A stretch of DNA of 33,623 bases from contig JAOZSV010000025.1 of assembly GCA_029939505.1 (NCBI GenBank), forward strand, positions 1-33,623. The letters run 5' to 3'. A program made the translations under genes and the position numbers. The stretch comes from Thiotrichaceae bacterium (GTDB taxonomy: Bacteria > Pseudomonadota > Gammaproteobacteria > Beggiatoales > Beggiatoaceae). Under the pieces are notes generated by a model. That model was given only the letters and a program-made list of their open reading frames with translations, was not told where the DNA came from and searched no databases. This document shows, one piece after another, positions 11,729 to 33,623 of this stretch (positions are counted from its first letter, which is position 1; each line of letters opens with the position of its first letter).

Positions 11729-11776
11729 AAGAATTAAAGGGTGAGCAAGCAAGCGTCAGGTCACTGCCATTAAGTT

Positions 11777-11819
11777 TTCGAGGTTTGAGTTTTTTTTTCA
11801 AAAAAACTCAAACCTCGAA
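11777..11819. repeat. Hairpin, TCGAGGTTTGAG arms
   Basis: Perfect 20-base arms (11777-11796 and 11800-11819) around TTC: TTCGAGGTTTGAG + T-run, then A-run + CTCAAACCTCGAA. In the second unit a different hairpin (32359-32401) occupies the same place, inside the same TAAGTT...AACTTA frame. Confidence 0.85.
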
Positions 11820-12189
11820 TACTTCCAAATCTAAAGGTTTGGACTCCAAGGCTTAACTTAATGGTATTGAAGCGTCAGGTGGGTCACTTTCTACTAAATC
11901 CACCCTCAAATTGCACTTTCCACCCGTTGATTAAAGATTTAATCAATGGCACAACAATTTTACTGTTTTTATAATAACACATCAAACTTCAAAAATATTT
12001 TTCGCGTTATTTTTTTAAATATTTTCGCATATTGCACCTTATGCCCATCATTTATTTAAAGGCGGTTCATTTTTTTAGGGTAAAATTTTTCTTCAAAAAA
12101 TTTGAAAGCCTCGAATTTTGATTGTGTGGTTGATCAAAAAGGCTTTTGACTCATCGTATTTTCGCCATATAGTTTGTCAGATAAATAAT

Positions 12190-12232
12190 GATCGAGGCGA
12201 AAGTTTTTCTTCAAAAAACTTTCGCCTCGATC
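12190..12232. repeat. Hairpin, GATCGAGGCGAAAG arms
   Basis: Perfect 19-base arms (12190-12208 and 12214-12232). The second unit has only GATCGAGGCGATC at the equivalent place (about 32793-32805), lacking 30 bases that make the hairpin. Confidence 0.85.
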
Positions 12233-12329
12233 ACAAGGGCAGACACGCAGGTCTGCCTCTACAAGTACGTTATTTCATACGATTTCAGGTAGGGGCATTC
12301 GAGGTTTTAGTTTTTCTTCAAAAAACGAA

Positions 12330-12369
12330 ATTCGAGGTTCAAGTTATCGAAAAAACTTGAACCTCGAAT
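12330..12369. repeat. Hairpin, ATTCGAGGTTCAAGTT arms
   Basis: Perfect 16-base arms (12330-12345 and 12354-12369) with an 8-base loop. The same element is present in the second unit at about 32902-32943. Confidence 0.85.
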
Positions 12370-12392
12370 CGAATCCTGTGTGTTCGCCCTGA

Positions 12393-12474
12393 TTGTGATC
12401 GAGGCTAAAGTTTTTTGAAGAAAAACTTTAGTCGAGGCTAATGTTTTTTCTTTAAAAAAAACATTAGCCTCGAC
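12393..12474. repeat. Two abutting hairpins, CTAAAG and CTAATG arms
   Basis: The first hairpin uses CTAAAGTTTTT against AAAAACTTTAG. The second has perfect 19-base arms GTCGAGGCTAATGTTTTTT (12431-12449) and its complement (12456-12474). Both recur in the second unit around 32970-33050. Confidence 0.8.
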
Positions 12475-12792
12475 TCGATCATTATTTATCTGAACATCTA
12501 TATATGGTAAAATAATTACAACGATCACTTAAAATTACCATAAAGATTTTCATCATTTAAACCGTTTTTGCTGAGATGATTATAGCCTAACTTTTTGTTT
12601 TTTAATGAAATTATTAATTTTAACGCCTGCCAAAAGCGGATTTGAATTTAAGTCAATCAAGAGAAAGTTTTAGGCGATAATCTCTGATCCATTGGATAAG
12701 ATATTATTATATCATTGTAAAATGGTGGGCAAGATAAAACTTTGCCCACCCTACCAGGCTACCAGGCTAAGGAATACAAAATAATTTCTACA

Positions 12793-12930
12793 ACGTTGTT
12801 TCAAACCTGTCAGGTTTAGTTGAACGTTGTTTCAAACCTGTCAGGTTTAGTTGAACGTTGTTTCAAACCTGGGTTTAGTTGAACGTTGTTTCAAACCTGA
12901 CAGGTTTTAAAAACCTGTCAGGTTTAGTTA
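12793..12930 (+). repeat. 31-base tandem repeat with AACCTGTCAGGTT palindrome
   Basis: Units start at 12793, 12824, 12855 (3 bases shorter) and 12883 (expanded with an extra palindrome). Each reads ACGTTGTTTCAAACCTG followed by the palindromic TCAGGTTTAGTTGA. The array ends 10 bases before the start codon at 12941. The second unit has one ACGTTGTTT followed by a different hairpin (33454-33486) in its place. Confidence 0.85.
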
Positions 12931-12940
12931 AAGACTCAAA

Positions 12941-15217: not shown

Positions 15218-16444
15218 TTATTTCCCATTTATTTCAAAATAGTCAATAATGGCTTGTTTGCCTTGTTTGACGATTTCTACCGGTGGGGTTTGGAATGGAT
15301 TGTCTTCGACATTGATGTCTGTAATCATGGGCATGGGAATTTTAATAAAAAAATTATTCCCCCAGTTAACTTCTAAGTCTAAATTTAAAAGTATTTTGGG
15401 AAATTGGCTTAAGTTATTTCCACATAAATCAAGCCCCAATATTTGCAGTTTTCCCATTTCCAGTGGCAAGTTGCTTAATTGGTTATAAGATAAATCAAGC
15501 TCAACCAAGTTTTGCAGATTTCCTATCGAAGGCGGCAAGTTGCTTAACTGGTTTCCTCCTAAATAAAGCTCTTCTAATTTTTGCAGATTTCCTATCGAAG
15601 GCGGCAAGTCGCTTAATTGATTTCCTCCTAAACTAAGCTCTTTTAATTTTTGCAGATTTCCTATCGCAGGCGGCAAATGGTTTAACTGGTTTCCTCTTAA
15701 ATCAAGAACTTCTAATTTTTGCAGATTTCCTATCGAAGGTGGCAAATCGCTTAACTGGTTTCCTCTTAAATAAAGCCCGGTTAATTTTTGCAGTTGTTCT
15801 ATCGAAGATGGCAAGTAACCTAACTGGTTATCTTCTAAAACAAGCCAAGCTAATTGTTGCAGTTTTCCTATCGAAAGCGGTAAGTCGCTTAACTGGTTTC
15901 CTCCTAAATAAAGACTCGTTAATTGTTGCAGTTTTTCTATTGAAGGCGGCAAATAGCTTAATTGGTTTCCTCCTAAATCAAGGTCAGTTAGGTTTTGCCA
16001 TTCTCCTATTGAAGGCGATAAGTTGCTTAATTGGTTTCCTCCTAATCCAAGCTTAGTCAATTTTTGTAGTTGTCCTATTGAAGGCGGCAAGTCGCTTAAT
16101 TGGTTTTCTCCTAATCCAAGCTTAGTCAATTTTTGTAGTTGTCCTATTGAAGGCGGCAAGTCGCTTAACTGATTCCCTCCTAAATCAAGCTCAGTTAAGT
16201 TTTGCAGTTTGACTATCGAAAGCGGTAACTCTTTCAAACCACAATTATATAAACCTAATCCCGTGATTTGATTATGCTTATTCCGCACATAGCCCACTGG
16301 ATAACTAGAATACTTCAGCTTTTCTGAATAAACAAAATGATGAATCTTCTTTCTGTTTTTTATTTTTTTGCCTATGGTTTGTTCTAATTGTTTGATAATT
16401 TCTGGTTTATCTGATTTGAATAAGTTTTTGAAAAATTTAAACAT
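15218..16444 (-). CDS. Leucine-rich repeat protein
   Basis: This encodes 408 aa from MFKFFKNLFKSDKPEI. I prefer the ATG at 16444 to 16513 because the extra 23 residues (MKGVYFFIPFDDPDTEL...) look non-conserved; neither start has a strong Shine-Dalgarno. After a basic N-terminal segment there are 13 repeats of 23 residues with consensus LTxLDLGGNQLSDLPPSIGNLQK, the SDS22/Shoc2-like plant-type LRR pattern. A cap follows, VEDNPFQTPPVEIVKQGKQA-IIDYF, of the kind that ends LRR domains of bacterial Roco-type proteins. No GTPase or other effector domain follows, and there is no signal peptide, so it is probably a cytoplasmic protein-binding scaffold. Repeats 2-3 and 8-11 are nearly identical at DNA level, suggesting expansion by slippage. 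Its link to the toxin genes is only positional. Confidence 0.9.
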   Translation of the reverse strand: MFKFFKNLFKSDKPEIIKQLEQTIGKKIKNRKKIHHFVYSEKLKYSSYPVGYVRNKHNQITGLGLYNCGLKELPLSIVKLQNLTELDLGGNQLSDLPPSIGQLQKLTKLGLGENQLSDLPPSIGQLQKLTKLGLGGNQLSNLSPSIGEWQNLTDLDLGGNQLSYLPPSIEKLQQLTSLYLGGNQLSDLPLSIGKLQQLAWLVLEDNQLGYLPSSIEQLQKLTGLYLRGNQLSDLPPSIGNLQKLEVLDLRGNQLNHLPPAIGNLQKLKELSLGGNQLSDLPPSIGNLQKLEELYLGGNQLSNLPPSIGNLQNLVELDLSYNQLSNLPLEMGKLQILGLDLCGNNLSQFPKILLNLDLEVNWGNNFFIKIPMPMITDINVEDNPFQTPPVEIVKQGKQAIIDYFEINGK

Positions 16445-16785
16445 GTTTTTTCCGTTTTTATTTAACTCGGTATCGGGGTCATCGAATGGAATAAAAAAAT
16501 AGACACCCTTCATATTTATGCAAAAGTAGTGAACAGTTTATTCTCTGCATGTCATTCCAGTGAAAACGAGATTCCAAACTATCTTTATTAAACTTGTCCG
16601 TAAATACTGTCATTGGTTAAAGAATAACAAAATAGGCTATCCATGCCTATTTTACCTTTGACCGTCCGTGACAAGGATACAAGGCTCTGGCCGTCCTGTG
16701 TCCGCTGGTTTTCGCAAGCTCAAACAACGCTCTCCCCAATGACTGGACGCAGTAACGCACTTTTTCAAAAGTGCTCTAGCTGCTA
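16445..16785. other. Non-coding gap between LRR gene and IS630
   Basis: I see no gene. Two small hairpins are present: AAAATAGGC...GCCTATTTT (16629-16653) and GCACTTTT-TC-AAAAGTGC (16757-16774). The string ACTTGTCCGTAAATA at about 16591 recurs at 18541. Confidence 0.6.
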
Positions 16786-18005
16786 GTACTCTAACAATCT
16801 TGGATTGATGGATACAATGATTTGAGTTTTATCCGTGCATCTTCAGTGGTAAAACGCCAGTTCACACGAATAGTTTCTTGATTTCGTTTCTTTTCCCATT
16901 TATCTATTTCTAACCGCAAAATTTCTTGATTTGGAATGCGTCGATTCAAGCATTGACGGCTCAAAACGCCAATTTCTATTTCTGCCATATCAAGCCAACT
17001 ACCGTGTTTTGGGGTGTAATGAATTTCCAAACGTTCAGCAATTCGTCTTGCTTCTTCTGGTTTGAATGCGCTATAAAGTGACCCCAGTTTGTGGGTATTC
17101 AAATTATCCATGACCAATATTATTTTTTTATCTGGATAGTGTTTGTCAACCAAATCTTTCATTAAATGTGCCCAGTCTATTTTTGTGTGCCTATCTGTGA
17201 CTTTGACATGTCGCCAGCCTTCCAGTGGTGCAGACAGCATAATTGCTCACTCCATTACGCTCGTATTCGTAATCATATTTTTCAACGCTATTTTCCTTTT
17301 GAGGTAACGGTGTTCGTGTTTCTTTCAGATGTTGCTTGCTGGTTTCATCCATACAAATCAACACTTCATCTTCTTTATAATCTCGGTGATAGACTTCAAG
17401 CACATCTTCCATTGCACAAACAAAATCGGCATCTTCTTTGGGGGGAATGACCCAACATTCATTTTGCCAAGGTTTTAATTCATTTTTTTTTAATGTTTGC
17501 CGAACACACTCAGTGGATATTGAATCAACAACTTTATGTTCAACCAATCTATCCGCAAGCCATTTCAACGTCCAATCAGAACGTCCTTCGGGTGCTTGAG
17601 AACAAGCAGTTGCTACCAAAAAAGCTTCTGCCATCAAGTTTTTTCGGTATCCGACGTTTTTGAACTCTTGGATTAATTGCTAAGTCAATACCTTCTTCAA
17701 CAAAACGTTTGCGAACACGCTCTACTGTCAATCGACTGACATTTTGTGCTTTGGCTATATCTGCATCTTTTAATGAAGTTCTTTCACCTGCTTCATCAGC
17801 TAATAATAAAATTTGAACATGAATCAGTTTGCGTACTGCTATTTTTCCTTTTGACGTTAATTTTTCTAATTCGATTCGTTCTTCTTGTGTTAACGTTACT
17901 TTATATTTTTTTGCTGGCATGACTCACATCTTGATGATAATTTGTTTTAATTGATAGGGAAATATATCATACATTATATTCATCATAGCTACGATGTCAG
18001 AGTAC
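16786..18005 (-). mobile_element. IS630-family insertion sequence with TA target duplication
   Basis: Terminal inverted repeats GTACTCTAACA (16786-16796) and TGTCAGAGTAC (17995-18005) differ at one position. They are flanked by TA at 16784-16785 and TA at 18006-18007, the target duplication expected for IS630/Tc1-mariner elements. The interior carries a frameshifted DDE transposase. Total length is 1220 bp, typical for the family. Confidence 0.9.
16791..17920 (-). pseudogene. IS630-family transposase, interrupted by two frameshifts
   Basis: Three consecutive minus-strand pieces form one transposase. The first (17920 to about 17640, MPAKKYKVTLTQEERIELEK) has the N-terminal HTH region, with ADIAKAQNVSRLTVERVRKR. 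The second (about 17637 to 17240, MAEAFLVATACSQAPEG) has the second HTH-like part (WTLKWLADRL) and the first catalytic Asp in EVLICMDETS. The third (17240 to 16791) has the second Asp in IILVMDNLNTH and the Glu in HGSWLDMAEIEIGVLSRQ. Frames change near KLDGRS/MAEAF and near GVSN/MLSAPLEGW. Programmed frameshifting usually gives one change between two frames, so two breaks point to decay. A trans-acting intact copy could still move the element because its ends look intact. Confidence 0.85.
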
Positions 18006-18628: not shown

Positions 18629-19603
18629 TTATGCTCTACCCAATAGCTTGCTGATTTTGCTTAAAATTTTCTTTAAAATTTTACCGACCAATATTAATAG
18701 GTCTAATAGGTATTCGCCTTTATTTGAATAACCCGCTTTTAACCACTGGTTCAATGAAATTTTGAGTAAAGTGAGTTTATGGCTAAATTCTTCTTGCTCC
18801 CAAGCATCTAGTAAAATTTGATCACATTCTTTGAGAAATTGTTTTTCAATTTTTCTATATGCTTTATATGCTTTATCATATAGAAATTCAAATTCTTTAT
18901 TTTCTGCTAGAAAAGGAGCATTTTCAGGCAATTTTAGGGTTTCAACTAGCGGCAAATCATTTTTTAACAAGATATCTTCCACTTGCTTAGAAAATTCATA
19001 GATAAGTGATGGTTCGTCTTGATTGATTTTTTTTATGTGCATAGCGTGAAGAAGGGTTATTGTTCCTTCAATTTTTCGCTTAAGGTAAAGCCAGTGAGTT
19101 TTTCCGTGTTCAATAAACTGTTTCTCAGTTTTAATCGTTTCAAATATATCCCATATATCCCATAAACCCGTATTTAATCCCTCCCACATGTCAGACTCTC
19201 TTACATCTGGTGCCATTAAGCGACCTTCAATATGTGGAATTTTGGTCAAATAAACGGTTATTTCTATCCAAAAAAACTGCACGTCCTCCAGAGTATAATT
19301 TTCGTGACGAAACGTTATAGAGTGGGGTTGCTTTGGGTTGCACAATATAGTAGCATAGTGTTCACAAATCAGTTTTTCCGTTTGTAAAATATTCTCCAAA
19401 TTTTGCTCTTCAAAAAAAATATTACGTTCATGATTTGTGTCTTCGTCTGTAAATATAGAAAAATCTAAAATTTCTTTTAAATCAATATGAGTTTTAAAAA
19501 AATCCTGCACAAATATCAAATATTTTGGCAGATAAGCTCTAAATGAACTGATTTTGCAGTCAGGCAAAAATTTTATGAATTTAAAATCAGATAAATACAT
19601 CAT
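18629..19603 (-). CDS. Candidate immunity protein D (FLPDC/CDQILL family)
   Basis: This encodes 324 aa. GAGG lies about 10 bases before the ATG at 19603 (a second ATG follows directly). It shares five motif blocks with three other proteins here: N-terminal FKFIKFLPDC, central VYLTKIPHIEG, HWLYLKRKIEG, EPSLIYEFSKQVEDILL, and C-terminal CDQILLDAWEQEEFSHKL with LNQWLKAG. Unlike the others it has a C-terminal extension (about 37 residues, LLDLLILVGKILKKILSKIS) that is amphipathic to hydrophobic and could be membrane-associated. No signal peptide is present. The family is new to me. Two members directly follow papain-like Rhs tips, so an immunity role is inferred for all four. This one has no adjacent intact toxin and may be an orphan immunity gene kept after its toxin was lost. 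Confidence 0.8.
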   Translation of the reverse strand: MMYLSDFKFIKFLPDCKISSFRAYLPKYLIFVQDFFKTHIDLKEILDFSIFTDEDTNHERNIFFEEQNLENILQTEKLICEHYATILCNPKQPHSITFRHENYTLEDVQFFWIEITVYLTKIPHIEGRLMAPDVRESDMWEGLNTGLWDIWDIFETIKTEKQFIEHGKTHWLYLKRKIEGTITLLHAMHIKKINQDEPSLIYEFSKQVEDILLKNDLPLVETLKLPENAPFLAENKEFEFLYDKAYKAYRKIEKQFLKECDQILLDAWEQEEFSHKLTLLKISLNQWLKAGYSNKGEYLLDLLILVGKILKKILSKISKLLGRA

Positions 19604-19897: not shown

Positions 19898-20695
19898 TTA
19901 TACCGCTTTCAACCACTCTTTTAAAGAAACACCTAGCGGTTTCAACTTGTTAGCAAATTCTTTACGACCCCATAGCAATAAAAGGAGTTGGTCATGTTGC
20001 TTCAAAAATATTTTATCATCCATTTTAGAAAAGAGATTTTTAAATACATAAGATAATGTGGTCACTCGTTCCATAAAACTAATTGATGATAAATCTTCCT
20101 CCACAAATTGAAAAGGTCTCTCCATTTGGTTATAGCGAGTCATTCTGTCACAAGAAGGTCGAAGTGATTCTATTTTCCAGACTTTTTTCCAAAAATAGAG
20201 CCATTTTCTTTTTCCAATTAATTGATTGTCATAGTAAGCTGAATCAATTAAACCTGTTTGTAAACCGTCAATTAAAAACGGTTTATATTTTTTATAAAAT
20301 GTTTGATGATTTATATCGTTGAGATCACCAAAATAACGAATTCCTAAGTTCCCTGTAACATGAGGAAAATGGTTGAGTTCAATGGTTATAGAAAAATCTC
20401 CTTCTCTGAGACACATCTCATTCCTTTTTAATTCACAAGGTAATTTACTAAAATCCCAATAAGAAAAAACAAATCTGTTAACTGATGTATCATACAATAT
20501 TGCTTCATATTCTTTGATAATTTTTTTATTTAAATAAAAAAAATCCTCAGTTCGTAAACAACGTCTGTGCCACGGATGCTGATGATATTTTGCTATTGAA
20601 TCAGTCAATTGTTGAAGATAAAATGCCAAATGTTTTTTATGACAGTCACGTAAAAAACTTGTAAAACTGATTTGGATACCAGGAAAAGTCATCAT
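19898..20695 (-). CDS. Candidate immunity protein C (divergent FLPDC/CDQILL family member)
   Basis: The preferred start at 20695 gives 265 aa (MMTFPGIQISFTSFLRDC). The frame is open for 80 more codons upstream to 20935, but that part is antisense to the secreted-protein fragment at 20743-21302 and not conserved. Shared motifs are FTSFLRDC near the N-terminus, ITIELNHFPHVTGNL, KWLYFWKKVWKIESL and the C-terminal HDQLLLLLWGRKEFANKLKP-LGVSLKEWLKAV. It lacks a clear EPSLVYEF block and is the most divergent of the four. No Shine-Dalgarno is visible and a breakpoint lies within about 50 bases upstream, so the native promoter may be gone. It is followed after 294 bases by family member D on the same strand; I see no gene in that gap. 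Confidence 0.75.
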   Translation of the reverse strand: MMTFPGIQISFTSFLRDCHKKHLAFYLQQLTDSIAKYHQHPWHRRCLRTEDFFYLNKKIIKEYEAILYDTSVNRFVFSYWDFSKLPCELKRNEMCLREGDFSITIELNHFPHVTGNLGIRYFGDLNDINHQTFYKKYKPFLIDGLQTGLIDSAYYDNQLIGKRKWLYFWKKVWKIESLRPSCDRMTRYNQMERPFQFVEEDLSSISFMERVTTLSYVFKNLFSKMDDKIFLKQHDQLLLLLWGRKEFANKLKPLGVSLKEWLKAV

Positions 20696-20742
20696 ATACA
20701 ATCGCTGCGAGCCAGGGAAAGCCGATAGGTGGGGGCGAGTAA

Positions 20743-21302
20743 AAGTGGACAGAGATTGCACGGGAGAGTCAGGGCGATTTACATCATCAAGCGCAATTAG
20801 CCAGGGCAGAATTGCTGGAACAATTGGGCGACGTTTTTTTAGCAACGCGCCTATTACAGCGTCTATTTCTAGGCACTGATCCACTCTTATCCCAAAAGGC
20901 TTATGATAAGTTATTGAAAAATAAAGAAAAAACAAAGAGTGCGCTATTACCCCTATTAGCGACAGCCGTATTGCGCTCAGAAACCGAATTTTCAGAAACC
21001 GAGTTTTTTCAAAAAACTCGGTTTCTAAACATATTAATTCAACTCATTCACGTTTTAATAGAAAAAGGCTATCAAAATGAAGCATTTATGCTCGGTTTGA
21101 TCAGGCCCCCAACGCAACGCCCTCATGCTTTGATGATAGAACTCGCTTATCATTCAAGTTGGTGGCAAACGTTTACGGCACTTCTCTGGTTTCTCTCAGA
21201 CGAAAAGCAACAATTATGGCTTGGTTTCAAAGCGCAAGATAAAGGAAATTATGCGGCGGCTATCAACTTTTGGCGTGATGCGGGTGCAGAAGGGCTCACA
21301 TA
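20743..21302 (+). pseudogene. Secreted TPR-like protein, copy C: internal fragment
   Basis: Codons from 20743 read KWTEIARESQGDLHHQAQLA, matching EKWTAIAQGSQGDLHHQAQL of copy A, and run without a frameshift through MLGLIRPPTQRPHALMIELA to DAGAEGLT and a stop near 21303. Copy A continues GLKFAHALKKGIEI, so this copy has lost both ends. It keeps the short in-frame hairpin (20994-21026), encoding ETEFFQKTRF, and shows what copy A looked like before its second hairpin. With no start or signal peptide it should not make a functional protein. Confidence 0.8.
20994..21026. repeat. Perfect hairpin inside a coding sequence, AGAAACCGAG arms
   Basis: Sixteen-base arms (20994-21009 and 21011-21026) surround a single C. 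The inserted stretch is in frame, encoding ETEFFQKTRF. The element at 33454-33486 is the same except for a paired G-to-A / C-to-T change. Confidence 0.9.
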
Positions 21303-22713: not shown

Positions 22714-23607
22714 TTAGTCCTTTCCAGCTTTTAACCATTCATCTAAAGACACATTCAACGGCTCAAGCATTTCACTAAACTTCTTATTTTCCCATGCATC
22801 TAACAAAATTTGATCGCATTTGGTAAGGAATTCCTCTATAACCTGATTTTGGGCTGCAAGCAAATCTTCCATCGTCTTTTGCTCTAAATTAGGTACACTC
22901 GACAGATCGGGAAGTCTTAGCTTGACGTAAGGATCGCCTATTAACGATAAAACGACTGAAGATTGCTTGGCAAACTCATACACAAGAGAAGACCCACCTT
23001 GTAATTTTTCTTGTGTGTACATCTGGTGAGGTACTTTGAGTTCCCTTATTTTTTCACGAAGATAAATCCAAGTTGGTTTACCTAGTAGAGTTTCTTTTTC
23101 TAATCCATTGCTTTCCAAATAAATTCCACCTAATTCAATAATATCCGCTACTCCTTTTTCCAATCCTCTTTCTAATTCCTCTTCTAGGGCCTTTCTTATA
23201 GAATTTTTACATCTATAATTATCGCATGATGAATGAAGTCTTGAAGAAATAATAACTCTCGGAATCTTGGTTAAAGAAATATCTATTGGCCCTTCTGTTC
23301 CCCTTGCACTTTCCATGACTATCGCAAAACCATGTGAAGAATGAGGGTAAATATCACACAACATCAGCACCCATTTATTCAAGAAAGGATTAATTAAAGA
23401 GTGCTGATAAATACTATACTTGGCATATAGTTTTTCCTTTTTAAATGACGGAAGAAAAATAGGTAATTTGTTTACAAGGCTCCTATAATTAGTTTGGCCA
23501 GATTTGGTATTCATAATATCTGTTAACTGCTCTATATATGATACAAATGATGCTTTACTGCAATCCGGCAAAAATTTAATTAAAATTATATCACTAATAA
23601 AAAACAT
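22714..23607 (-). CDS. Candidate immunity protein B (FLPDC/CDQILL family)
   Basis: This encodes 297 aa from MFFISDIILIKFLPDC. An upstream ATG at 23640 would add 11 residues, but the 23607 start lines up with the starts of the related proteins at 19603 and 25748. Family motifs are IKFLPDCSKASFVSYIEQLT, IDISLTKIPRVI, TWIYLREKIREL, SSLVYEFAKQSSVVL and CDQILLDAWENKKFSEML followed by LNVSLDEWLKAGK. It is cytoplasmic, with no signal peptide. It lies 120 bases after the orphan Rhs module with the second papain-like tip, the position of a cognate immunity gene; the gap holds a nested hairpin (23655-23715). Pairing with that tip is inferred from adjacency. Sequence divergence from member A is high outside the motifs, as expected if each recognises a different tip. 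Confidence 0.82.
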   Translation of the reverse strand: MFFISDIILIKFLPDCSKASFVSYIEQLTDIMNTKSGQTNYRSLVNKLPIFLPSFKKEKLYAKYSIYQHSLINPFLNKWVLMLCDIYPHSSHGFAIVMESARGTEGPIDISLTKIPRVIISSRLHSSCDNYRCKNSIRKALEEELERGLEKGVADIIELGGIYLESNGLEKETLLGKPTWIYLREKIRELKVPHQMYTQEKLQGGSSLVYEFAKQSSVVLSLIGDPYVKLRLPDLSSVPNLEQKTMEDLLAAQNQVIEEFLTKCDQILLDAWENKKFSEMLEPLNVSLDEWLKAGKD

Positions 23608-23654
23608 AATGCTTATATACTCACTCGTTCTTTTGAACATTTTCTTAAGACACC

Positions 23655-23726: not shown

Positions 23727-24848
23727 TTAAGGGAATAGAGGTATTTTACCCACTCTCTTTGCCATTATTAACGCAAACGCCGTCCATGATTGACAATTCC
23801 ATCGCCCCTGAAAAGAATATGTCGTCTCCTTATAAGGTTCATAAACCACAAATTGCCACAAAAAATATTGCAAAATTGTAAATCGTGCCTCTTTCCTCCA
23901 AATTCTTGTCGTTGGGTTCTCCTTTTTCATTTCCTTTCTTGAGGTAGAGTCCTTTATCAAAAAACCGGGATAGGTATTAGTTGGAGAGCTTCCATCTAAA
24001 GCACACTTAATATCTTTCATAGCTTGCACCCGTTGCCCTCTATCCATCCCGTCAAACTGAATTCCAATATCAAATCGCCATCCTTGACGTTTAAATTTCT
24101 TCTCAACATAGACAAAATGGTGTGCCAAAGGATTTTTACTTATTCTAGGAATATTACTAGTTCCCTTAAAAACATGATATTTATTACTCTTTAGCAGTGC
24201 TTTAATAAAGCGACGATAAATATTTATCCTTCCCAAATTCAATATACTTCTTATTTGTAGCCCAATACTAACACTGGCTAAACTCATCTGTCCTGTTGGA
24301 TCAACAAACACCACTGGATTCCCATTCGCATAAAGATACTTATGCAAAGTAATCGGTTGATCCCGTTGTCCTTGCCAAGTATCTGAGGTAAGAAAACGCC
24401 CACGACTTGGGTTATAATACCGCGCTCTCAAGTAAATCAACCCGGTTTGCTGATCATGTTGTTCGCCAGTGAATCGGTAGTGATTTAGCGTGGCACCATT
24501 TATCTGTAATGGATTCCCAAATGCGTCATAGTGGTAAACATCCGTTACCGTTTGGTTGTCATCGGTTAAGCCTTTGGTACTACCCAATCGATCATAATGG
24601 AAGTAGCGATTTTCGGATCCCCGTTTTTGACGAAGTAAATCATTGCCGTAGGTGTAGCTGGCTAGCAAATCATTTTCAGAAGAACGTTCTTCCAAGACTT
24701 GGGCATAAGGACGATTTTTGTCAACCAAGTAGTGAGTAGCAACCTCATTGAGCGTGCTACCGATCCGAATTCCATCGGTATCATAAACATAAGCCATGCT
24801 GTCATTAGAAGTGGTTACGTTGACTAAGCGGTTCTTCAAGTCATAACC
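23727..24848 (-). pseudogene. Orphan (displaced) Rhs core with papain-like toxin tip B
   Basis: The sequence starts mid-gene (GYDLKNRLVNVTT), directly after the stop of candidate immunity A and in the same frame (GAA AAA TAA TAA GGT TAT). The only nearby initiator is a TTG at 24839, without Shine-Dalgarno or signal peptide. The Rhs core (SYTYGNDLLRQ to RYYNPSRGRFLTSD) is nearly identical at DNA level to that of Rhs2 over about 574 bases. The tip of about 190 residues then diverges but is homologous: KYHVFKGTSNI, AHHFVYVEKKF, GWRFDIG, FTILQYFLW, YSFQGRWNCQSWTAFAL. The conserved His of AHHFV and Cys of WNCQ suggest a permuted papain-like (NlpC/P60-LRAT) active site. It is probably a silent donor cassette rather than an expressed gene. 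Candidate immunity B follows. Confidence 0.8.
24275..24848 (-). repeat. Rhs core homology block, orphan copy
   Basis: It aligns without gaps to 26962-27535 in Rhs2 (offset 2687). By eye only a few substitutions are seen, mainly at the tip-proximal end and one near 24809. This is the segment through which the tip could be exchanged. Confidence 0.85.
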
Positions 24849-24851
24849 TTA

Positions 24852-25748
24852 TTATTTTTCATATTTTAACCACTCCTCTAAAGACACCCCTAATGGGACT
24901 AAATTCTCACTAAACAGTTTCTCTCCCCAAGCTTCCAACAAAATTTGGTCATACTTCTCCAAAAACTCTGCAAGCCTTTTATTATCAGCCGCATCCCATT
25001 TATTTATTTCAGTTTGGGACAAACCGGCGAATTTAAAAATATCTCGCTGTTTGAGTTCTATGTAAGGGCTAGTGCTTGTTGGTAACAAGATTTCTCCCAC
25101 TTGCAGGGCAAATTCATATACCAGCGAAGGCTCATCACATGACGATTTCTCTTGTTCCTGAAGCCATGAAAGGGTTTTAAACTGAGATATTTTTTCTTGG
25201 AGATAAACCCAATGAAGTTGGCCTAAAGTAATTATTTCTTCAGTAGTCGGTTTATCAATACTCATTTGATCCACTAGTCCCTGTTCCATAGCCATTACTA
25301 TCAATTTTTTATACTGGTTTCTCTCGGCTTTGGGTGGTTCCAAAAAAAACTCAAAGTGAGGTATCTTAGTCATATAAAAATTCAAATGAAAACATGCTCT
25401 ATCAAATAAGGCACCCGGAGAAGGATATTGCCATAACATAGAACCCACAACAGGAGAGTGTCTTGATTGAGCTAAGTCTAGGTTTTTAGTGTACCTATTG
25501 AGAGAACCCAAAAATGGCAAAGGATGTGGTTGAAATGCTGTTCTTTCTAAATCAGATGTCTTAGTGGTTTTATTTTTGACGTAGGCTTGGTATAATTCCC
25601 TTTTGATACTTGACGGTTCAAAGTTGACATTTTTATCAACAGGCCACTTTTGAAAAGTCTCGGTTAGTAGGCTTAGGTATAAATTAAATGACACTTCTCC
25701 ACAATCAGGCAAGAATTTAGTAAACCCAAAATAAAAATGTAGCACCAT
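24852..25748 (-). CDS. Candidate immunity protein A (FLPDC/CDQILL family)
   Basis: This encodes 298 aa from MVLHFYFGFTKFLPDC. AGGA lies about 8 bases before the ATG, supporting the start. Family motifs are FTKFLPDCGEVSFNLYLSLL, FYMTKIPHFEFFL, HWVYLQEKISQFK, EPSLVYEFALQVGEILL, and YDQILLEAWGEKLFSENLVP followed by LGVSLEEWLKYEK. It is cytoplasmic, without signal peptide or membrane helix. It is the first gene after full-length Rhs2 on the same strand, although a 605-base gap separates them, so it probably protects against the Rhs2 tip. Its stop codon touches the start of the next orphan Rhs core, in frame, as expected if the immunity gene and the next module were joined by recombination. No named immunity family is recognised. 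Confidence 0.83.
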   Translation of the reverse strand: MVLHFYFGFTKFLPDCGEVSFNLYLSLLTETFQKWPVDKNVNFEPSSIKRELYQAYVKNKTTKTSDLERTAFQPHPLPFLGSLNRYTKNLDLAQSRHSPVVGSMLWQYPSPGALFDRACFHLNFYMTKIPHFEFFLEPPKAERNQYKKLIVMAMEQGLVDQMSIDKPTTEEIITLGQLHWVYLQEKISQFKTLSWLQEQEKSSCDEPSLVYEFALQVGEILLPTSTSPYIELKQRDIFKFAGLSQTEINKWDAADNKRLAEFLEKYDQILLEAWGEKLFSENLVPLGVSLEEWLKYEK

Positions 25749-26353: not shown

Positions 26354-29300
26354 TCAAGGATAGACACGCATTTTTTGTATGAGTCTTGCGTTCCATAACG
26401 CAAAACGGGTCCAATTTTGACAGTTCCATCTGTCCTTAAAAGAATAAAGAAACGTTTTCCCATCTTCGTAAGCATACGGAAAGTAAACCGTCATTTCCCA
26501 TAGAAAGTATTGCATGTATGTAAATTTGGCTTCCGCCTTCTTTTTAAGGTGTCCCGGAACAAACATTTCATTTCCGGTGTGAATTTGCTTTCTTGTTGTA
26601 TCGTTCTTCATCAAAGTAGCATTATATCGGGTGGAGGGTTTTTCGCCTCCTAAAACAAAAGCATTCAGTAGTTCACATTTAAACTGCTTACGCTGAACCA
26701 CCGTTCTTGGTCGAAATGTAGCAATATCATAACGCCATCCCGCACCTACCAGCGGTTTTCGGCTTCTTCCAACTTTGAGCAGAGTATGTTCAACAAAAAC
26801 AAAGTGATGAGCAGGTGCCTTGGTTACGTTCCGAATGCCAGAAGTTCCTTTGAAAACGTCAAACTTCTTCCCTTTAAGTTTATTCTTGATAATGTAACGA
26901 GCAAGCTTTAGCATAGACGTTCTTGCTAAATGGCCCATTATTTGGAATGTTGCATTGAGACTGGTTAAACTCATATGTCCCGTTGGATCAACAAACACCA
27001 CTGGATTCCCATTCGCATAAAGATACTTATGCAAAGTAATCGGTTGATCCCGTTGTCCTTGCCAAGTATCTGAGGTAAGAAAACGCCCACGACTTGGGTT
27101 ATAATACCGCGCTCTCAAGTAAATCAACCCGGTTTGCTGATCATGTTGTTCGCCAGTGAATCGGTAGTGATTTAGCGTGGCACCATTTATCTGTAATGGA
27201 TTCCCAAATGCGTCATAGTGGTAAACATCCGTTACCGTTTGGTTGTCATCGGTTAAGCCTTTGGTACTACCCAATCGATCATAATGGAAGTAGCGATTTT
27301 CGGATCCCCGTTTTTGACGAAGTAAATCATTGCCGTAGGTGTAGCTGGCTAGCAAATCATTTTCAGAAGAACGTTCTTCCAAGACTTGGGCATAAGGACG
27401 ATTTTTGTCAACCAAGTAGTGAGTAGCAACCTCATTGAGCGTGCTACCGATCCGAATTCCATCGGTATCATAAACATAAGCCATGCTGTCATTAGGAGTG
27501 GTTACGTTGACTAAGCGGTTCTTCAAGTCATAACCATAAGTGGTGGTTCCTTCGGGCCCATTTTGCGTTAAGGTGTTGCCATTAGCATCATAGCTATAAG
27601 AATGATCTCCAGCTGTGAGTAAGCGGTTGTTGGCATCGTAGTTATAGCGGCCGATAACCACGCCATCGACTTGAATTGCTACACGGTTGCTTACCGCATC
27701 ATAGCTGTAAGCGAGAGTCAGATCGCCGTTGATCGGGTCGGTGATGTCTTCCTGAATCAGTCGCCCTAACTTATCATAAGTATAAGCGACTATTCGGCCA
27801 TTGGGTTCAATTACTTGAATTGGGTAGCCAAGTACATTCAGGGTATACTCGTAACTGCCAATGACACTTATGTCCGAATTGAGATGCTCTAGTTTGACCA
27901 ACTGATTGGACGTATCGTAATGATACACGGTGATGGTGCCATTGGGACGAGTCACACGCGTTAAATTACCAACTACATCATAAACATAGCTAGTTACACC
28001 CTCATCAGAATTTGTAACACTACTGAGGCGGTTGAGTTTATCGTAAGTGTAAGTCGTTTGGCCAGAAGAAGTAGTGACAAAGGTGCGATTGCCATTAGCA
28101 TCGTAGCCATATTCAAGGGTAGCCCCTTCTGGATGAACCACTTTGACCAATTGATTATGCACATCATAGCTGTAGTGAGTGACACCTCGACTATCAGTGA
28201 TAGTAGCGGGTAGGCCGTTTTTGGTGTAGGTATAACCAATGATACTTTCATCTGGATAGGTTTCCATCACCAGCCGATTATTGCTATCATAGCTATAACT
28301 AATTGTATCACCATTAAAATTTGTATGGGTCAGGACATTACCATTACCCTCATAAGTGAAGGTTTCGGTCATGTTAAGCGGCAAGGTTCGACTTAACGGC
28401 CTACCCAAATTATCATATGTCCAGCTAGTGGTATGATCCAGCGCGTCAGTTTCGCTGATGACATTGCCAACTTCATCATAGAGATAGCTGGTTTCACCGC
28501 CTTCGGCATCAATAACTTTAGTCAAATGGCCTACTGCATCATATTCATAGCGGGTTACTTGACCGGCCCTATCAACATCTTGAACCCGACGGCCCAAGTC
28601 ATCATACACCACTTGAGTAAAGGTATTATCCGCGTAGATAACTTGAGTTGGTCTACCGACACCATCATATTCAAACCGAATCGTTTGGCCCGATGCATCC
28701 GTGACACTGGTACGATTACCAATACCATCATAGGTTAGCTGGATACTTTGACCTAAAGCATCGGTGATTTTAACGGGTTGTTCACCTTTTCCATATTCAA
28801 AAGTCGTTCGGTTACCATTCGCATCGACTTCCGCCAATACCTGCCCAACAGCATCATATTCCCGGCTGGTAGAGGTTTTGTCAGGTAATAGGGTTTCCAC
28901 CAGACGATTTTGATAATCGTAACGATACTGCGTGGTTTGCCCTTGCCGATCCGTGAAGCTGATTTGATTATCATTGGCATCATACATCGAACTGGTTGAA
29001 GTGTCATCCGGGTAGTTAGTTTTAATTAAACGACCCTGTATATCGTATTCAAAAGTGGTACGATGCCCGTTTTTATCTACAGTCGCGACGACTTGACTAG
29101 CTGCATTATATTCCGTCTGGGTCACATAACCGGCAACATCTGTGATTTTGGTGGGTTTACCATCAGCATCGTAGACTGTCGTACTGAGGAATGAAACGGG
29201 ATTGCCATCAGCCCCAGTACGTGTTTTAAGTTGACTGAGTTCATTGCCATTTTTATCATAAGTGATATGGGTGACATTTCCCAAACTATCGGTTTGACTG

Positions 29301-32275
29301 ATAGGATTTCCGTCATTGTTATAACTAAATGACATAATGAGTTTACCACGCCCATTGAGGATGGCAGTGGCTTGTTTAGCACTGTCATAGATTGGCTCAA
29401 AAATATGACCCGCTGGATCGGTTGCCTTGAGTAGATTGCCTTGCGTGTCATAAGACATTTCTAACACATTATCATTGGGGTATTCTTCCCTTAAGAGATT
29501 GTTATGGTTATCGTAAGCACTTTTCGTGATGTGACCTTCTGGGTCTTTTTTAGTCAAAACGTTCCCATGGGCATCATAAGTGTACTTGGTGGTATGGCCG
29601 AATGGATCAGTGCGACTTAATTCATTCCCATTTGCATCGTAATCATGATAAGTCACATGACCTTTTGCATCAATTTCTGTGACTATTTTACCTTTATCAT
29701 CATAAACGTAAGTCGTCGCAAATCCACGACGATCACGAATGATCTCCTCACGCCCTTCGATATCATGATTAAAATGGATGTGGTTACCTTCTGCGTCAAT
29801 TTGAGCAATTAATCTGCCAGAATCGTCATAGAGGTTCCGCACCATTTTGCGGCCTAACGGGTCTTGAATATCCGTCATGGCGTGGGTGCTATTGTAGCTG
29901 TAACCTACCGTGTTGCCGATCGCATCGCTGGAAGCAATTAAGTCACCAGCAGTGTTGTATTCATATTTCAATGAGTTGCCATTCGGATCAGTGATTTTGG
30001 TAATACGATCCGAACTATCACGGGTGAACTGGACACTTTTGCCAGCAGAATGAATGATGCCATCCTTGCTATAAGTCAAAGTATGGCCGTTAGGGTCTTT
30101 TACTTGACGGATACCAAAGTCCTGTTCCAATTCATATTGGTAGCCTGCTTGAGTCGTTAACCGATAGCGATTGGGATTGACAGATTGACCAGTCGATAGA
30201 TAAATCAGATCATTCCCATCAAAAAGGATAAAACCCAGAGCATCTAATGATTCCAGTTTGGAGAAGGTGCCTTGCTGTGATTGAAATACCACCACTGGAT
30301 TAATGGGTCCCCCTTGGAAAATGGGGCCGCATTCCGGTTGTACATGGACATTGAAGGTTTCAACTTGACCATCTGGCAGCGTCACAGCAACTTGTGGCGA
30401 GCCTAATGGTTCGAGACAAAGTTTGCCCATGAAACCGAAGCCGTATTGGTTGAGTATCCAATCTTTTCCCGGTATACGCGATTCCTCCACTTTAATACTC
30501 TGATAGTTGACGCTCCAACCATGCCCAAAGTCAAGTGCTTGCCCTTTTTGGCGCGTGTCGTAGGTTCGCAAAACATTGAGGGGCATACCCATCATCGGAA
30601 TCGACAAGTCTTCTACTGTGAAGGAAAAGTGGCCGACTTTGAGATCACCTGAGACTTTGATAACGCGGTCAACCACCGTGGTTTGGTTATTGGCATCCGT
30701 CGCGGTCACACGAATATCGTACAGGCCGTTCATAAGCAAACTTGGGTCAAGAGTGCCTAAGACATCGTTATTGATTGCACTTGACCCATTGAAAAAAGTG
30801 GTATAGCTATTTTTACCACGAGGTGACCAAGCAAGAGTATAACCAATCAGATAAGTATCAGAAACCGTACCAATAATCTCGGTAGGCGCTGTTATTTCGG
30901 CATCTGCTGGGGGAGAAGTCAGCGTCACAACTGGCGGTGTGTGATCATTAGGAGCCGTCACCACAAAACGGCTGGATGCTTCCGTCGAATTGCCCTTAGA
31001 ATCGGTGACAGTCACTTGAATCAGATAAAGGCCAGGCGTGTCGCTGCTGAACTGAGCGTGACCTTCAGCATCAACTTCAATGGGGGTACCATTAACGGTC
31101 AAAACAATCGTCAAACGGTCAAGCGCAACATCGCTTTCAATGGTGATTGGCAGCGTGTCGCCTGGTATGACAGTCTCGGCGTGCTTGATTTTGATGACTG
31201 GCGGCGGTGTTTGGTTTTCAACGTCATAGAGGATTTGTCGATCACCACTGGGGTAAATGATCCGAAAGTCGGCAATACCATCGCCATTGACATCCTCAAT
31301 CTGTTCCATAATGAGTTTGCCATCAGGAGGTGGTGTCCCTTTGGTGACGAGCTCATCTAATTGGCTTTGATGAATTTCCCCATTTTGAGTGATTGTAATC
31401 GCACCATCAGGGGTAATCTCAACGGCTTCAACACCTTCAAGGCTTTCAAAATAGGCTCGAAGGGCCTCTAAGTTAGAGGGAATAGTGCAGGCAATAGGCC
31501 AAGCGATACCCTCAATATCATTGTAAGGGGTATTAAAACGGGCATCGGCAACGGTTTCACATCGGTTGGCATTATAGGTATGAATACCCAGTTGCTTGTC
31601 GTTGTGAAAACCATAGAGCAACAAGTCATCAGGCAATGTCTCAAGGCTCTCCACTTTTTTGGGCAAACCTTTACAAGCAACGTTCCAACCCGTGCTATCA
31701 TACACCCACAGGGTACTCGCCTGCGGATTGTCAGCGGCAACACCATACAAAAGGGTGCCTTCCCGATTCCACGCCAGTGCGTAAATGGAGAAAGGCCCAA
31801 ATTGTTCAAAGGCGTTTTTTTCGGCTTCGGTTTGGGGCCAAATTAAAGTACCCTCTGCTGTGTCAATATCCAGTTCCAACAAGCCTTGGTCTGACCAAGC
31901 CACTAGACGACCATCAAAATGAAAGGCCAAACCGACGACGTTGTCAAAGCCAATGTCACCGATCAGCTTAGGTTCTCCCGTGTCGCCATCGACTTGGAAC
32001 AATTGGGCCTCTTTTTTGCCAGAGGCGGCAAAGAGTGAGCGAGTTTGCGGATGGCTATCAAGGGCCTCAATGTCATAGGCTTCAAGTTTGTCACCTAACG
32101 AATTAAAAAGACCTTCTTTTAAGTCGTAAGTGAAAAATTGAGTCTCGGAAACCCCTTCATCATGCACTGCATAAACGGTGTTACATTGGGCTGGGGCTTG
32201 TGCTTGTGCAGCTTGAAAATGACTTGAAAAGTAAATCAAGCTGAAACAGGCGAAATAAAATAGGGTTTTATTCAT
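26354..32275 (-). CDS. Rhs2: secreted YD-repeat polymorphic toxin with permuted papain-like tip A
   Basis: This encodes 1973 aa, starting at 32275 for the same reason as Rhs1 (AGGAG at 32285-32289, 9 bases away). The N-terminal two thousand bases are almost identical to Rhs1: signal peptide (AAQAQA), propeller-like region, DVNGDGIADF, Ig-like modules and Rhs entry segment. The YD-repeat cage then diverges, and the core reads YTYGNDLLRQKR to RYYNPSRGRFLTSDTW. There is no Hint domain; the tip follows PTGHMS at about residue 1769. The tip carries AHHFVFVE with His1823-His1824, GAGWRYDIA, and RWNC(1952)QNWTRFAL. His before Cys, with the Cys in an NCQxW/NCExF-like motif, is the order in permuted NlpC/P60-LRAT enzymes (peptidase, amidase or acyltransferase). 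That assignment is inference from motifs. Candidate immunity A follows. Confidence 0.9.
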   Translation of the reverse strand: MNKTLFYFACFSLIYFSSHFQAAQAQAPAQCNTVYAVHDEGVSETQFFTYDLKEGLFNSLGDKLEAYDIEALDSHPQTRSLFAASGKKEAQLFQVDGDTGEPKLIGDIGFDNVVGLAFHFDGRLVAWSDQGLLELDIDTAEGTLIWPQTEAEKNAFEQFGPFSIYALAWNREGTLLYGVAADNPQASTLWVYDSTGWNVACKGLPKKVESLETLPDDLLLYGFHNDKQLGIHTYNANRCETVADARFNTPYNDIEGIAWPIACTIPSNLEALRAYFESLEGVEAVEITPDGAITITQNGEIHQSQLDELVTKGTPPPDGKLIMEQIEDVNGDGIADFRIIYPSGDRQILYDVENQTPPPVIKIKHAETVIPGDTLPITIESDVALDRLTIVLTVNGTPIEVDAEGHAQFSSDTPGLYLIQVTVTDSKGNSTEASSRFVVTAPNDHTPPVVTLTSPPADAEITAPTEIIGTVSDTYLIGYTLAWSPRGKNSYTTFFNGSSAINNDVLGTLDPSLLMNGLYDIRVTATDANNQTTVVDRVIKVSGDLKVGHFSFTVEDLSIPMMGMPLNVLRTYDTRQKGQALDFGHGWSVNYQSIKVEESRIPGKDWILNQYGFGFMGKLCLEPLGSPQVAVTLPDGQVETFNVHVQPECGPIFQGGPINPVVVFQSQQGTFSKLESLDALGFILFDGNDLIYLSTGQSVNPNRYRLTTQAGYQYELEQDFGIRQVKDPNGHTLTYSKDGIIHSAGKSVQFTRDSSDRITKITDPNGNSLKYEYNTAGDLIASSDAIGNTVGYSYNSTHAMTDIQDPLGRKMVRNLYDDSGRLIAQIDAEGNHIHFNHDIEGREEIIRDRRGFATTYVYDDKGKIVTEIDAKGHVTYHDYDANGNELSRTDPFGHTTKYTYDAHGNVLTKKDPEGHITKSAYDNHNNLLREEYPNDNVLEMSYDTQGNLLKATDPAGHIFEPIYDSAKQATAILNGRGKLIMSFSYNNDGNPISQTDSLGNVTHITYDKNGNELSQLKTRTGADGNPVSFLSTTVYDADGKPTKITDVAGYVTQTEYNAASQVVATVDKNGHRTTFEYDIQGRLIKTNYPDDTSTSSMYDANDNQISFTDRQGQTTQYRYDYQNRLVETLLPDKTSTSREYDAVGQVLAEVDANGNRTTFEYGKGEQPVKITDALGQSIQLTYDGIGNRTSVTDASGQTIRFEYDGVGRPTQVIYADNTFTQVVYDDLGRRVQDVDRAGQVTRYEYDAVGHLTKVIDAEGGETSYLYDEVGNVISETDALDHTTSWTYDNLGRPLSRTLPLNMTETFTYEGNGNVLTHTNFNGDTISYSYDSNNRLVMETYPDESIIGYTYTKNGLPATITDSRGVTHYSYDVHNQLVKVVHPEGATLEYGYDANGNRTFVTTSSGQTTYTYDKLNRLSSVTNSDEGVTSYVYDVVGNLTRVTRPNGTITVYHYDTSNQLVKLEHLNSDISVIGSYEYTLNVLGYPIQVIEPNGRIVAYTYDKLGRLIQEDITDPINGDLTLAYSYDAVSNRVAIQVDGVVIGRYNYDANNRLLTAGDHSYSYDANGNTLTQNGPEGTTTYGYDLKNRLVNVTTPNDSMAYVYDTDGIRIGSTLNEVATHYLVDKNRPYAQVLEERSSENDLLASYTYGNDLLRQKRGSENRYFHYDRLGSTKGLTDDNQTVTDVYHYDAFGNPLQINGATLNHYRFTGEQHDQQTGLIYLRARYYNPSRGRFLTSDTWQGQRDQPITLHKYLYANGNPVVFVDPTGHMSLTSLNATFQIMGHLARTSMLKLARYIIKNKLKGKKFDVFKGTSGIRNVTKAPAHHFVFVEHTLLKVGRSRKPLVGAGWRYDIATFRPRTVVQRKQFKCELLNAFVLGGEKPSTRYNATLMKNDTTRKQIHTGNEMFVPGHLKKKAEAKFTYMQYFLWEMTVYFPYAYEDGKTFLYSFKDRWNCQNWTRFALWNARLIQKMRVYP
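26962..27535 (-). repeat. Rhs core homology block, full-length gene copy
   Basis: Partner of 24275-24848. It ends at the tip boundary (DPTGHMS) on one side and at GYDLKN on the other, so a single crossover here would replace tip A by tip B and delete candidate immunity A. Confidence 0.85.
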
Positions 32276-32284
32276 AATTATCAT

Positions 32285-32289
32285 CTCCT
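32285..32289 (-). promoter_or_regulatory. Ribosome binding site deciding the Rhs2 start
   Basis: AGGAG lies 9 bases before the ATG at 32275 and directly touches the ATG at 32284. Identical to the Rhs1 site. Confidence 0.75.
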
Positions 32290-32358
32290 AAGAATTAAAG
32301 GGTGAGCAAGCAAGCGTCAGGTCAATGCCATTAAGTTAAGCCAGGGCGAACACGCAGG

Positions 32359-32401
32359 ATTCGAGGCTAATGTTTTTCTTCAAAAAACATTAGCCTCGAA
32401 T
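32359..32401. repeat. Hairpin, ATTCGAGGCTAATG arms
   Basis: Perfect 19-base arms (32359-32377 and 32383-32401) around CTTCA. It is at the same site as the TCGAGGTTTGAG hairpin of the first unit. Confidence 0.85.
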
Positions 32402-33453
32402 GCCCCTACAATCACATCATACACGGGGTTTTGTAGGGGCAGACCTGCGTGTCTGCCCTTAACTTAATGGCATTGAAGCGTCAGGTGGGTCACTTTCTAC
32501 TAAATCCACCCTCAAATTGCACTTTCCACCCGTTGATTAAAGATTTAATCAATGGCACAAAAATTTTACTGTTTTTATAATAACACATCAAACTTCAAAA
32601 ACATTCATTTTTTAGCGTTATTTTTTTAAATATTTTCGCATATTGCACCTTATGCCCATCAATTAAAGGCGGTTCATTTTTTTAGGGTAAAATTTTCAAA
32701 AAACTCGAAAGCCTCGAATTTTGATTGTGTGGTTGATCAAAAAGGCTTTTGATTAATCGTATTTTCGCCCTATAGTTTGTCAGATAAATAATGATCGAGG
32801 CGATCACAAGGGCAGACACGCAGGTCTGCCCCTACAAGTACGTTATTTCATACGATTTCAGGTAGGGGCATTCGAGGTTTGAGTTTTTCTTCAAAAAACG
32901 AAATTCGAGGTTCAAGTTATCGAAAAAACTTGAACCTCGAATCGAATCCTGTGTGTTCGCCCTGATTGTGATCGAGGCTAAAGTTTTTTGAAGAAAAACT
33001 TTAGTCGAGGCTAATGTTTTTTCTTTAAAAAAAACATTAGCCTCGACTCGATCATTATTTATCTGAACATCTATATATGGTAAAATAATTACAACGATCA
33101 CTTAAAATTACCATAAAGATTTTCATCATTTAAACCGTTTTTGCTGAGATGATTATAGCCTAACTTTTTGTTTTTTAATGAAATTATTAATTTTAACGCC
33201 TGCCAAAAGCGGATTTGAATTTAAGTCAATCAAGAGAAAGTTTTAGGCGATAATCTCTGATCCATTGGATAAGATATTATTATATCATTGTAAAATGCCG
33301 TTGCACGATAAAACTTTGCCCACCCTACCAGGCTCCTGTTTATACTCACCGCGTTTTGGATGAAATAGTCAATATTTTGTTATTGAACTAAGGAATATAA
33401 AATAATTTCTACAACGTTGTTTTAGTCTATCGTTTTTCAGATAAATACGGAAA

Positions 33454-33486
33454 AGAAACCAAGTTTTTTCAAAAAACTTGGTTTCT
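33454..33486. repeat. Perfect hairpin, AGAAACCAAG arms
   Basis: Sixteen-base arms around a single C. It differs from 20994-21026 only by one base pair in the stem, changed on both arms. It stands where the first unit has the 31-base tandem array, just before the secreted-protein start. Confidence 0.9.
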
Positions 33487-33519
33487 AAGAGATAAGATGC
33501 TCTGCTTAAAAGACTCAAA

Positions 33520-33623
33520 ATGAATATTAAAAAATTATCCTTTCACCCATTTTTCATTATTACCACATTTTTATTATGGCCTTTTGTCAGTTATGCCCTC
33601 CTTGATGATATACAAATTGGATT
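33520..33623 (+). CDS. Secreted protein of unknown function, copy D: 5' end only (window edge)
   Basis: The frame starts MNIKKLSFHPFFIITTFLLW and continues PFVSYALLDDIQIG to the window end. It matches the start of copy B, with a two-residue deletion and changes after MNIK, and keeps the Sec signal peptide ending near VSYA. The context AAAAGACTCAAAATG before the start is the same as in copy B; no Shine-Dalgarno is seen. It is divergent from Rhs2, as copy B is from Rhs1. Whether it is full length cannot be seen. Confidence 0.8.
   Translation, partial: MNIKKLSFHPFFIITTFLLWPFVSYALLDDIQIG

What the first reader, a model, noticed from the sequence alone, without database searches (positions are those of the whole stretch)
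26354..26972. Rhs2 tip looks like a permuted papain-like (NlpC/P60-LRAT) toxin, with a second version in the orphan module
Seen: the tips at 26354-26970 and 23727-24280 align at KGTSxI, AHHFV(F/Y)VE, GWR(Y/F)DI, QYFLW, YSF..RWNCQ.WT.FAL. Known: in permuted NlpC/P60 and LRAT-like enzymes the His precedes the Cys and the Cys sits in an NCExF-like motif. Inference: His1823 or 1824 and Cys1952 of Rhs2 form the catalytic pair, and the target could be peptidoglycan, lipids or proteins.
Basis: partly seen in the sequence, partly recalled or inferred. Interest (0 to 1): 0.7.

Follow-up and report, generated by a model that had tools for sequence, protein, structure and literature searches.

The report
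Permuted papain-like Rhs toxin tips
Two related, swappable toxin ends of giant Rhs proteins in a sulfur-bacterium genome look like a new family of papain-like enzymes with the active-site order reversed, each followed by its own probable antidote gene; it is a new family of a known kind of bacterial weapon.

Summary
The Rhs2 tip and the orphan tip are homologous (38% over 211 columns) and share every motif named, while the DNA just upstream is 99.1% identical: the signature of tip swapping. A third intact homologue tips an Rhs protein of Candidatus Parabeggiatoa, and a broken fourth lies in another genus of the family. Invariant in the three intact copies are a His pair, an Asp on the next strand, a Tyr 8-10 residues before the Cys, and one Cys: the four active-site positions of permuted NlpC/P60-LRAT enzymes. 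A moderate-confidence model puts the His pair at a strand start and the Cys at a helix start. Its four best structural matches (TseH, CLN5, Aichivirus 2A twice) are, or are thought to be, permuted papain-like enzymes, clear of the rest but at Z 6-7. No sequence library matches, profile comparisons are not significant, the GD motif is missing, and a second model failed. A new immunity family follows the tips in the same three genomes and lacks a signal peptide or clear membrane helix, hinting at a cytosolic or inner-leaflet target. Best reading: a permuted papain-like thiol acyl-hydrolase/acyltransferase toxin. New family of a known kind; substrate untested.

The parts
26354..32284 (-). Rhs2: long Rhs protein (1976 aa) with a probable Sec signal peptide, RHS repeats and the DPTG core end, carrying the tip
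   Evidence: ORF; Pfam RHS_repeat E 9e-143 and DUF6531; signal peptide judged by eye from MNKTLFYFACFSLIYFSSHFQAAQAQA
26354..26980 (-). Rhs2 tip: predicted permuted papain-like toxin domain
   Evidence: P0001; alignment with two other intact tips; model and structural matches
26804..26809 (-). Codons of the invariant His pair (H58/H59 of P0001, 1826/1827 of the ORF); the first is the better candidate by analogy with LRAT relatives
   Evidence: Invariant in all three intact tips; start of strand 58-65; first His of the pair is the invariant one in LRAT relatives
26726..26728 (-). Codon of invariant Asp85, candidate third residue of the triad
   Evidence: Invariant; on strand 80-88 that follows the His strand
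26444..26446 (-). Codon of invariant Tyr179, candidate fourth active-site residue, 8 before the Cys
   Evidence: Invariant; counterpart Tyr is invariant 7 before the Cys in LRAT relatives and described in PMC3142127
26420..26422 (-). Codon of Cys187 (1955 of the ORF), candidate nucleophile in WNCQNWT
   Evidence: Only Cys invariant in all three intact tips; first residue of helix 187-202
23727..24839 (-). Orphan module: end of an Rhs core almost identical to Rhs2 plus a second version of the tip (23727-24284); frame opens at a TTG, no start of its own evident
24852..25748 (-). Probable immunity gene of the Rhs2 tip (298 aa)
   Evidence: Same family follows the tip in all genomes that have it; no signal peptide or clear membrane helix
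22714..23640 (-). Probable immunity gene of the orphan tip (308 aa)
   Evidence: 35% identical to the first; follows the orphan tip directly
18629..19603 (-). Further member of the immunity family, no tip in front of it
   Evidence: Profile match E 1.5e-37; alignment
19898..20935 (-). Further, more distant member of the immunity family
   Evidence: Profile match E 8.5e-81 with the eight-member profile that includes it; local match E 1.1e-8 with the three-member profile that does not

Best explanation
The two tips belong to one new family of Rhs toxin domains with a circularly permuted papain-like (NlpC/P60-LRAT type) catalytic core. The first His of the HH pair activates the Cys of the WNC motif, Asp85 orients the His, and Tyr179 helps polarise the substrate carbonyl; the Cys then forms a thioester with an acyl group that is hydrolysed or passed on. 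The most likely substrate class is an acyl or lipid linkage, as for other permuted members, rather than peptidoglycan. The tip rides on an Rhs cage, is neutralised by the gene that follows it, and can be exchanged for the orphan version through the shared Rhs core DNA. Shown: homology of the tips, invariance of the residues, tip-swap architecture, genomic pairing with the downstream family. Supported by a model: the fold. Inferred: catalysis, substrate class, toxicity and immunity.
For: Three intact homologues keep HH, D, Y and C in this order. Model with beta strands first and the Cys helix last, HH at a strand start, Cys at the helix start. Best structural matches TseH Z 7.2 (118 aligned, rmsd 3.1), CLN5 Z 6.7, Aichivirus 2A Z 6.2 and 6.0, next row Z 3.9 with rmsd 10.3. 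Best viral match a picornavirus polyprotein, probability 0.98 against 0.21 or less for the others, though E is 0.011 and the matching part is not identified. LRAT relatives from the same bacteria read HHGIYIG ... Y..NNCE; a loose pattern built on both matches all three tips and 6 of 9 LRAT relatives, but 1 to 7 of 200,000 shuffles (pattern chosen after seeing the data). Family literature: triad plus Tyr, hydrophobic pocket in permuted members (PMC3142127); Tox-Act1, a permuted NlpC/P60 toxin, cleaves phospholipids (PMC12994826). Tip and immunity families occur in the same 3 of 42 genomes of the family.
Against: Mean pLDDT is only 64 and four of the five models were poor. A second model of the trimmed orphan tip failed (pLDDT 41) and matched nothing useful. 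Foldseek alone ranks no permuted enzyme significantly (TseH rank 20, E 1.2), and Z under 8 can be a common arrangement. Profile-profile comparison with LRAT and C92 relatives is not significant. The GD motif of the NlpC/P60 cluster is absent. No direct evidence of toxicity.
Confidence: 0.72

Rival explanations
1. Permuted papain-like enzyme that acts on a protein in the cytosol (peptidase, deconjugating enzyme, deamidase or depalmitoylase, like the permuted PPPDE/Desi enzymes or CLN5) rather than on membrane lipid.
For: The paired immunity proteins have no signal peptide and no clear membrane helix, unlike Imm-Act1 with two (PMC12994826), so neutralisation probably happens in the cytosol. Rhs-borne toxins are usually cytosolic (same paper). 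CLN5, a depalmitoylase according to PMC10318531, is the second-best structural match.
Against: A soluble antidote could also protect the inner leaflet. Two of the four structural matches have a reported or proposed lipid or acyl link (TseH phospholipase activity; CLN5). Nothing here shows the substrate.
Confidence: 0.35
2. Peptidoglycan amidase or endopeptidase acting in the periplasm.
For: Canonical NlpC/P60 enzymes cut peptidoglycan, and the Rhs2 chain has a probable Sec signal peptide.
Against: The permuted members have a hydrophobic pocket and act on lipid-type substrates (PMC3142127; PMC12994826). The immunity family lacks an export signal.
Confidence: 0.08
3. Not papain-like at all: another alpha+beta toxin fold in which the conserved His, Cys and Trp are structural or bind metal.
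For: Moderate model, failed second model, no significant sequence match to any known family.
Against: Four active-site positions in the right order and on the right secondary-structure elements, and the top structural matches all of one enzyme group.
Confidence: 0.2
4. Decayed tips under no selection.
For: The orphan module has no evident start codon of its own and the copy in a third genus is broken.
Against: Rhs2 is intact over 1976 codons. The two tips differ at about 60% of positions and yet keep frame and all candidate catalytic residues.
Confidence: 0.05

Closest known systems
Tox-Act1 (STox_15) of Salmonella T6SS, permuted NlpC/P60 toxin (PMC12994826)
   Same: Antibacterial-type toxin domain with His first and Cys last (H43/C151, 108 apart; here 109 in the orphan tip and 129 in Rhs2), followed by an immunity gene
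   Different: No sequence match through Pfam or NCBIfam here; Tox-Act1 is toxic in the periplasm and its immunity protein has two membrane helices, while the present family has neither signal peptide nor clear membrane helix. Direct sequence comparison not run
TseH-type effectors (DUF6695; PDB 6v98)
   Same: Best structural match, Z 7.2 over 118 residues, permuted catalytic order
   Different: 8% identity in the structural alignment; TseH is a stand-alone T6SS effector, not an Rhs tip
LRAT/H-rev107 family (PF04970)
   Same: HHGIYIG / Y..NNCEHF against HHFVYVE / Y..WNCQ.WT, same order and similar spacing of the Tyr
   Different: No Pfam match; profile-profile comparison not significant; GD motif absent
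Papain-like toxin domains Tox-PL1, Tox-PL-2, Tox-PL3, Tox-NLPC/P60 of polymorphic toxins (PMC3482391)
   Same: Papain-like domains at the tips of Rhs-type polymorphic toxins
   Different: These are listed with the Cys before the His; here the His comes first

Membership tests
Rhs polymorphic toxin tip with immunity gene | Variable C-terminal domain after a conserved Rhs core end, swappable between copies | tested here: met
   99.1% identical DNA upstream, diverged tips (38% protein identity) directly after DPTG; RHS repeats
Rhs polymorphic toxin tip with immunity gene | Conserved small gene directly downstream that goes with the tip | tested here: met
   Same family downstream in three genomes, and in the same 3 of 42 genomes as the tip
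Rhs polymorphic toxin tip with immunity gene | Toxicity of the tip and protection by the partner | not testable with these tools
   Needs expression in a laboratory strain
Permuted NlpC/P60 (LRAT, YaeF/YiiX) enzymes | Catalytic His before catalytic Cys, with a polar third residue | tested here: met
   Invariant HH, then Asp, then Cys in three intact homologues
Permuted NlpC/P60 (LRAT, YaeF/YiiX) enzymes | Conserved Tyr as fourth active-site residue, shortly before the Cys in permuted members | tested here: met
   Invariant Tyr 8-10 before the Cys; rule from PMC3142127; invariant 7 before the Cys in LRAT relatives
Permuted NlpC/P60 (LRAT, YaeF/YiiX) enzymes | Papain-like core in permuted order | tested here: inconclusive
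   Moderate model and top four structural matches agree, but Z is below 8, Foldseek alone is not significant and a second model failed
Permuted NlpC/P60 (LRAT, YaeF/YiiX) enzymes | GD motif on the first strand | tested here: not met
   The first strand reads F/Y-x-VFK-G/A-T with no conserved GD; motif described in PMC10318531 and PMC3142127
Permuted NlpC/P60 (LRAT, YaeF/YiiX) enzymes | Significant profile match to PF04970 or PF05708 | tested here: not met
   No Pfam match up to E 10 for either family; hhalign against relatives not significant
Permuted NlpC/P60 (LRAT, YaeF/YiiX) enzymes | Hydrophobic acyl-binding pocket and thiol acyl chemistry | not testable with these tools
   Coordinates not available; needs a structure and an assay

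The most novel reading that the evidence does not exclude
A new family of permuted papain-like Rhs toxins that works from inside the target cell, on a cytosolic protein or the inner membrane leaflet, guarded by a new family of soluble immunity proteins that may bind the active site.
Probability: 0.35. Interest if true: 0.6.

Novelty: new member of a known kind. Interest (0 to 1): 0.45.

Why it matters
Permuted NlpC/P60 toxins have only just been shown to attack membranes (Tox-Act1, 2026). A diverged family on Rhs tips, with apparently soluble antidotes, would widen the known range of this enzyme fold in bacterial competition and gives named residues and gene pairs to test. Neither the toxin nor the immunity family is in the protein-family libraries searched.

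Tried and rejected
Pfam, NCBIfam, PADLOC and solved-structure sequence searches found nothing significant for tips or immunity proteins. Plasmid and viral-contig searches found no relative. Class-wide weak hits of the tip profile: the one that was read (L009) is a pyruvate-flavodoxin oxidoreductase with GWAYDIG, a chance resemblance; the class-wide ones mostly lie in similar ~1200-codon frames matching the same stretch but were not read, and a phylum-wide sample found none beyond the window's own. Profile comparison with LRAT and C92 relatives from the same bacteria: not significant, although the LRAT one aligned NCQSWTAFA with NCEHFARWC. A second structure job on the trimmed orphan tip gave pLDDT 41 and no useful matches; it is not used as evidence either way beyond a similar order of strands and helices. 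TseH and Tox-Act1 sequences were not fetched as yardsticks, since they are injected effectors of pathogens; they are compared through structure titles and the paper only.

Full report
What is there. On the minus strand Rhs2 (26354-32284, 1976 codons) ends in a variable domain after the Rhs core end DPTG. Directly downstream lie a 298-aa gene (24852-25748), then an orphan module (23727-24839) with a copy of the Rhs core end and a second version of the tip, then a 308-aa gene (22714-23640). The core ends of Rhs2 and of the orphan are 99.1% identical in DNA over 579 bases and diverge at the tips, which is the usual structure for exchange of Rhs tips by recombination. The orphan frame begins at a TTG with no evident start of its own, so it is probably a silent reserve (inference).

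The observation. A search of 95 related genomes found a third intact tip in G039, the same 64,045-base contig as Candidatus Parabeggiatoa sp. nov. 3, QNEL01000001.1, where it also ends a long Rhs protein, and a fragment in a further genus, G018, which lies next to transposase-like frames and keeps NCQTWTRYAL. Samples of 369 genomes of the class and 398 of the phylum gave no convincing further copy; the family looks narrow, with the limit that one alignment of three rows is a weak probe.

Active site. Invariant in the three intact tips are H58, H59, D85, Y179 and C187 (numbers of P0001). C187 is the only invariant Cys; C102 is missing in the third copy. Permuted NlpC/P60 enzymes carry, in this order, His, a polar third residue, a Tyr and the Cys (PMC3142127). 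LRAT relatives fetched from the same group of bacteria show HHGIYIG with the first His invariant, and an invariant Tyr 7 before the Cys of NNCE; the tips have the Tyr 8 or 10 before the Cys. By this analogy the first His of the pair is the better candidate. A loose pattern written from both groups matches all three tips and 1 to 7 of 200,000 shuffles of each; since it was written after seeing the data, this is only a rough guide.

Fold. A model of the Rhs2 tip from the three-row alignment has mean pLDDT 64 and pTM 0.66; four of the five models were poor. Its order is strand 40-47, strand 58-65 opening with the His pair, strand 80-88 with D85, helix, strand 119-129, helices, and a last helix 187-202 opening with the Cys. 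Foldseek alone finds nothing significant. The second-look aligner puts TseH (Z 7.2), CLN5 (6.7) and Aichivirus 2A (6.2, 6.0) first, then drops to 3.9 with rmsd above 10. PMC12994826 calls TseH permuted NlpC/P60, and PMC10318531 lists CLN5 among papain-like enzymes as a depalmitoylase; that the 2A protein belongs to the H-box/NC group is my own knowledge. The ends of the CLN5 alignment (model 204 to CLN5 297) would place C187 on CLN5 residue 280 if there is no gap between; that CLN5 uses Cys280 is from memory and was not checked. The best viral match is a picornavirus polyprotein, probability 0.98 but E 0.011, matching part unknown. Set against this: Z below 8, a failed second model, and no significant profile match to LRAT or C92 relatives.

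Partners. The downstream genes form one family: 35% and 51% identity among the three paired ones, all ending near DQILLxAW...FSExLxPLxVSLDEWLKAG. In the 42 genomes of the bacterial family the tip and this family occur in the same three. Two more members lie at 18629-19603 and 19898-20935 of the window, and two more follow the tip in Parabeggiatoa, a polyimmunity pattern. No member matches Pfam. By hydropathy none has a signal peptide or clear membrane helix; P0004 has a borderline N-terminal stretch. Imm-Act1 has two membrane helices and Tox-Act1 acts in the periplasm, so the present pair probably acts elsewhere: in the cytosol or at the inner leaflet.

Verdict. Works like a permuted papain-like thiol enzyme: likely (0.72). 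Formal membership of the NlpC/P60 superfamily is not claimed, since the GD motif is absent and no profile match exists. Substrate: acyl or lipid linkage favoured, cytosolic protein next, peptidoglycan unlikely. All of toxicity, immunity and chemistry remain to be tested at the bench.

Noticed in passing
29751-33623 and 9187-13050: About 3.9 kb duplicated at 89.7% DNA identity: the front part of Rhs2 and of Rhs1 with the region upstream, so the two Rhs genes come from a duplication.
   Followed up: partly
5283-11723 (-) and 2126-4048 (-): Rhs1 and a second Rhs-type frame carry a pretoxin HINT domain before their tips, unlike Rhs2.
   Followed up: no
18629-19603 (-) and 19898-20935 (-): Extra members of the immunity family without a tip in front, as in a polyimmunity locus.
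   Followed up: partly
15218-16513 (-): Leucine-rich-repeat frame with a long run of near-identical tandem units at about 69-base spacing; its start also reads KKIHHFVYSEK, probably by chance.
   Followed up: no
16791-17920 (-): Three overlapping frames that look like a transposase in pieces (IS630-like by eye).
   Followed up: no
L054 602-3478: In genome G018 the tip is reduced to a fragment beside transposase-like frames, while the immunity gene next to it is open.
   Followed up: partly
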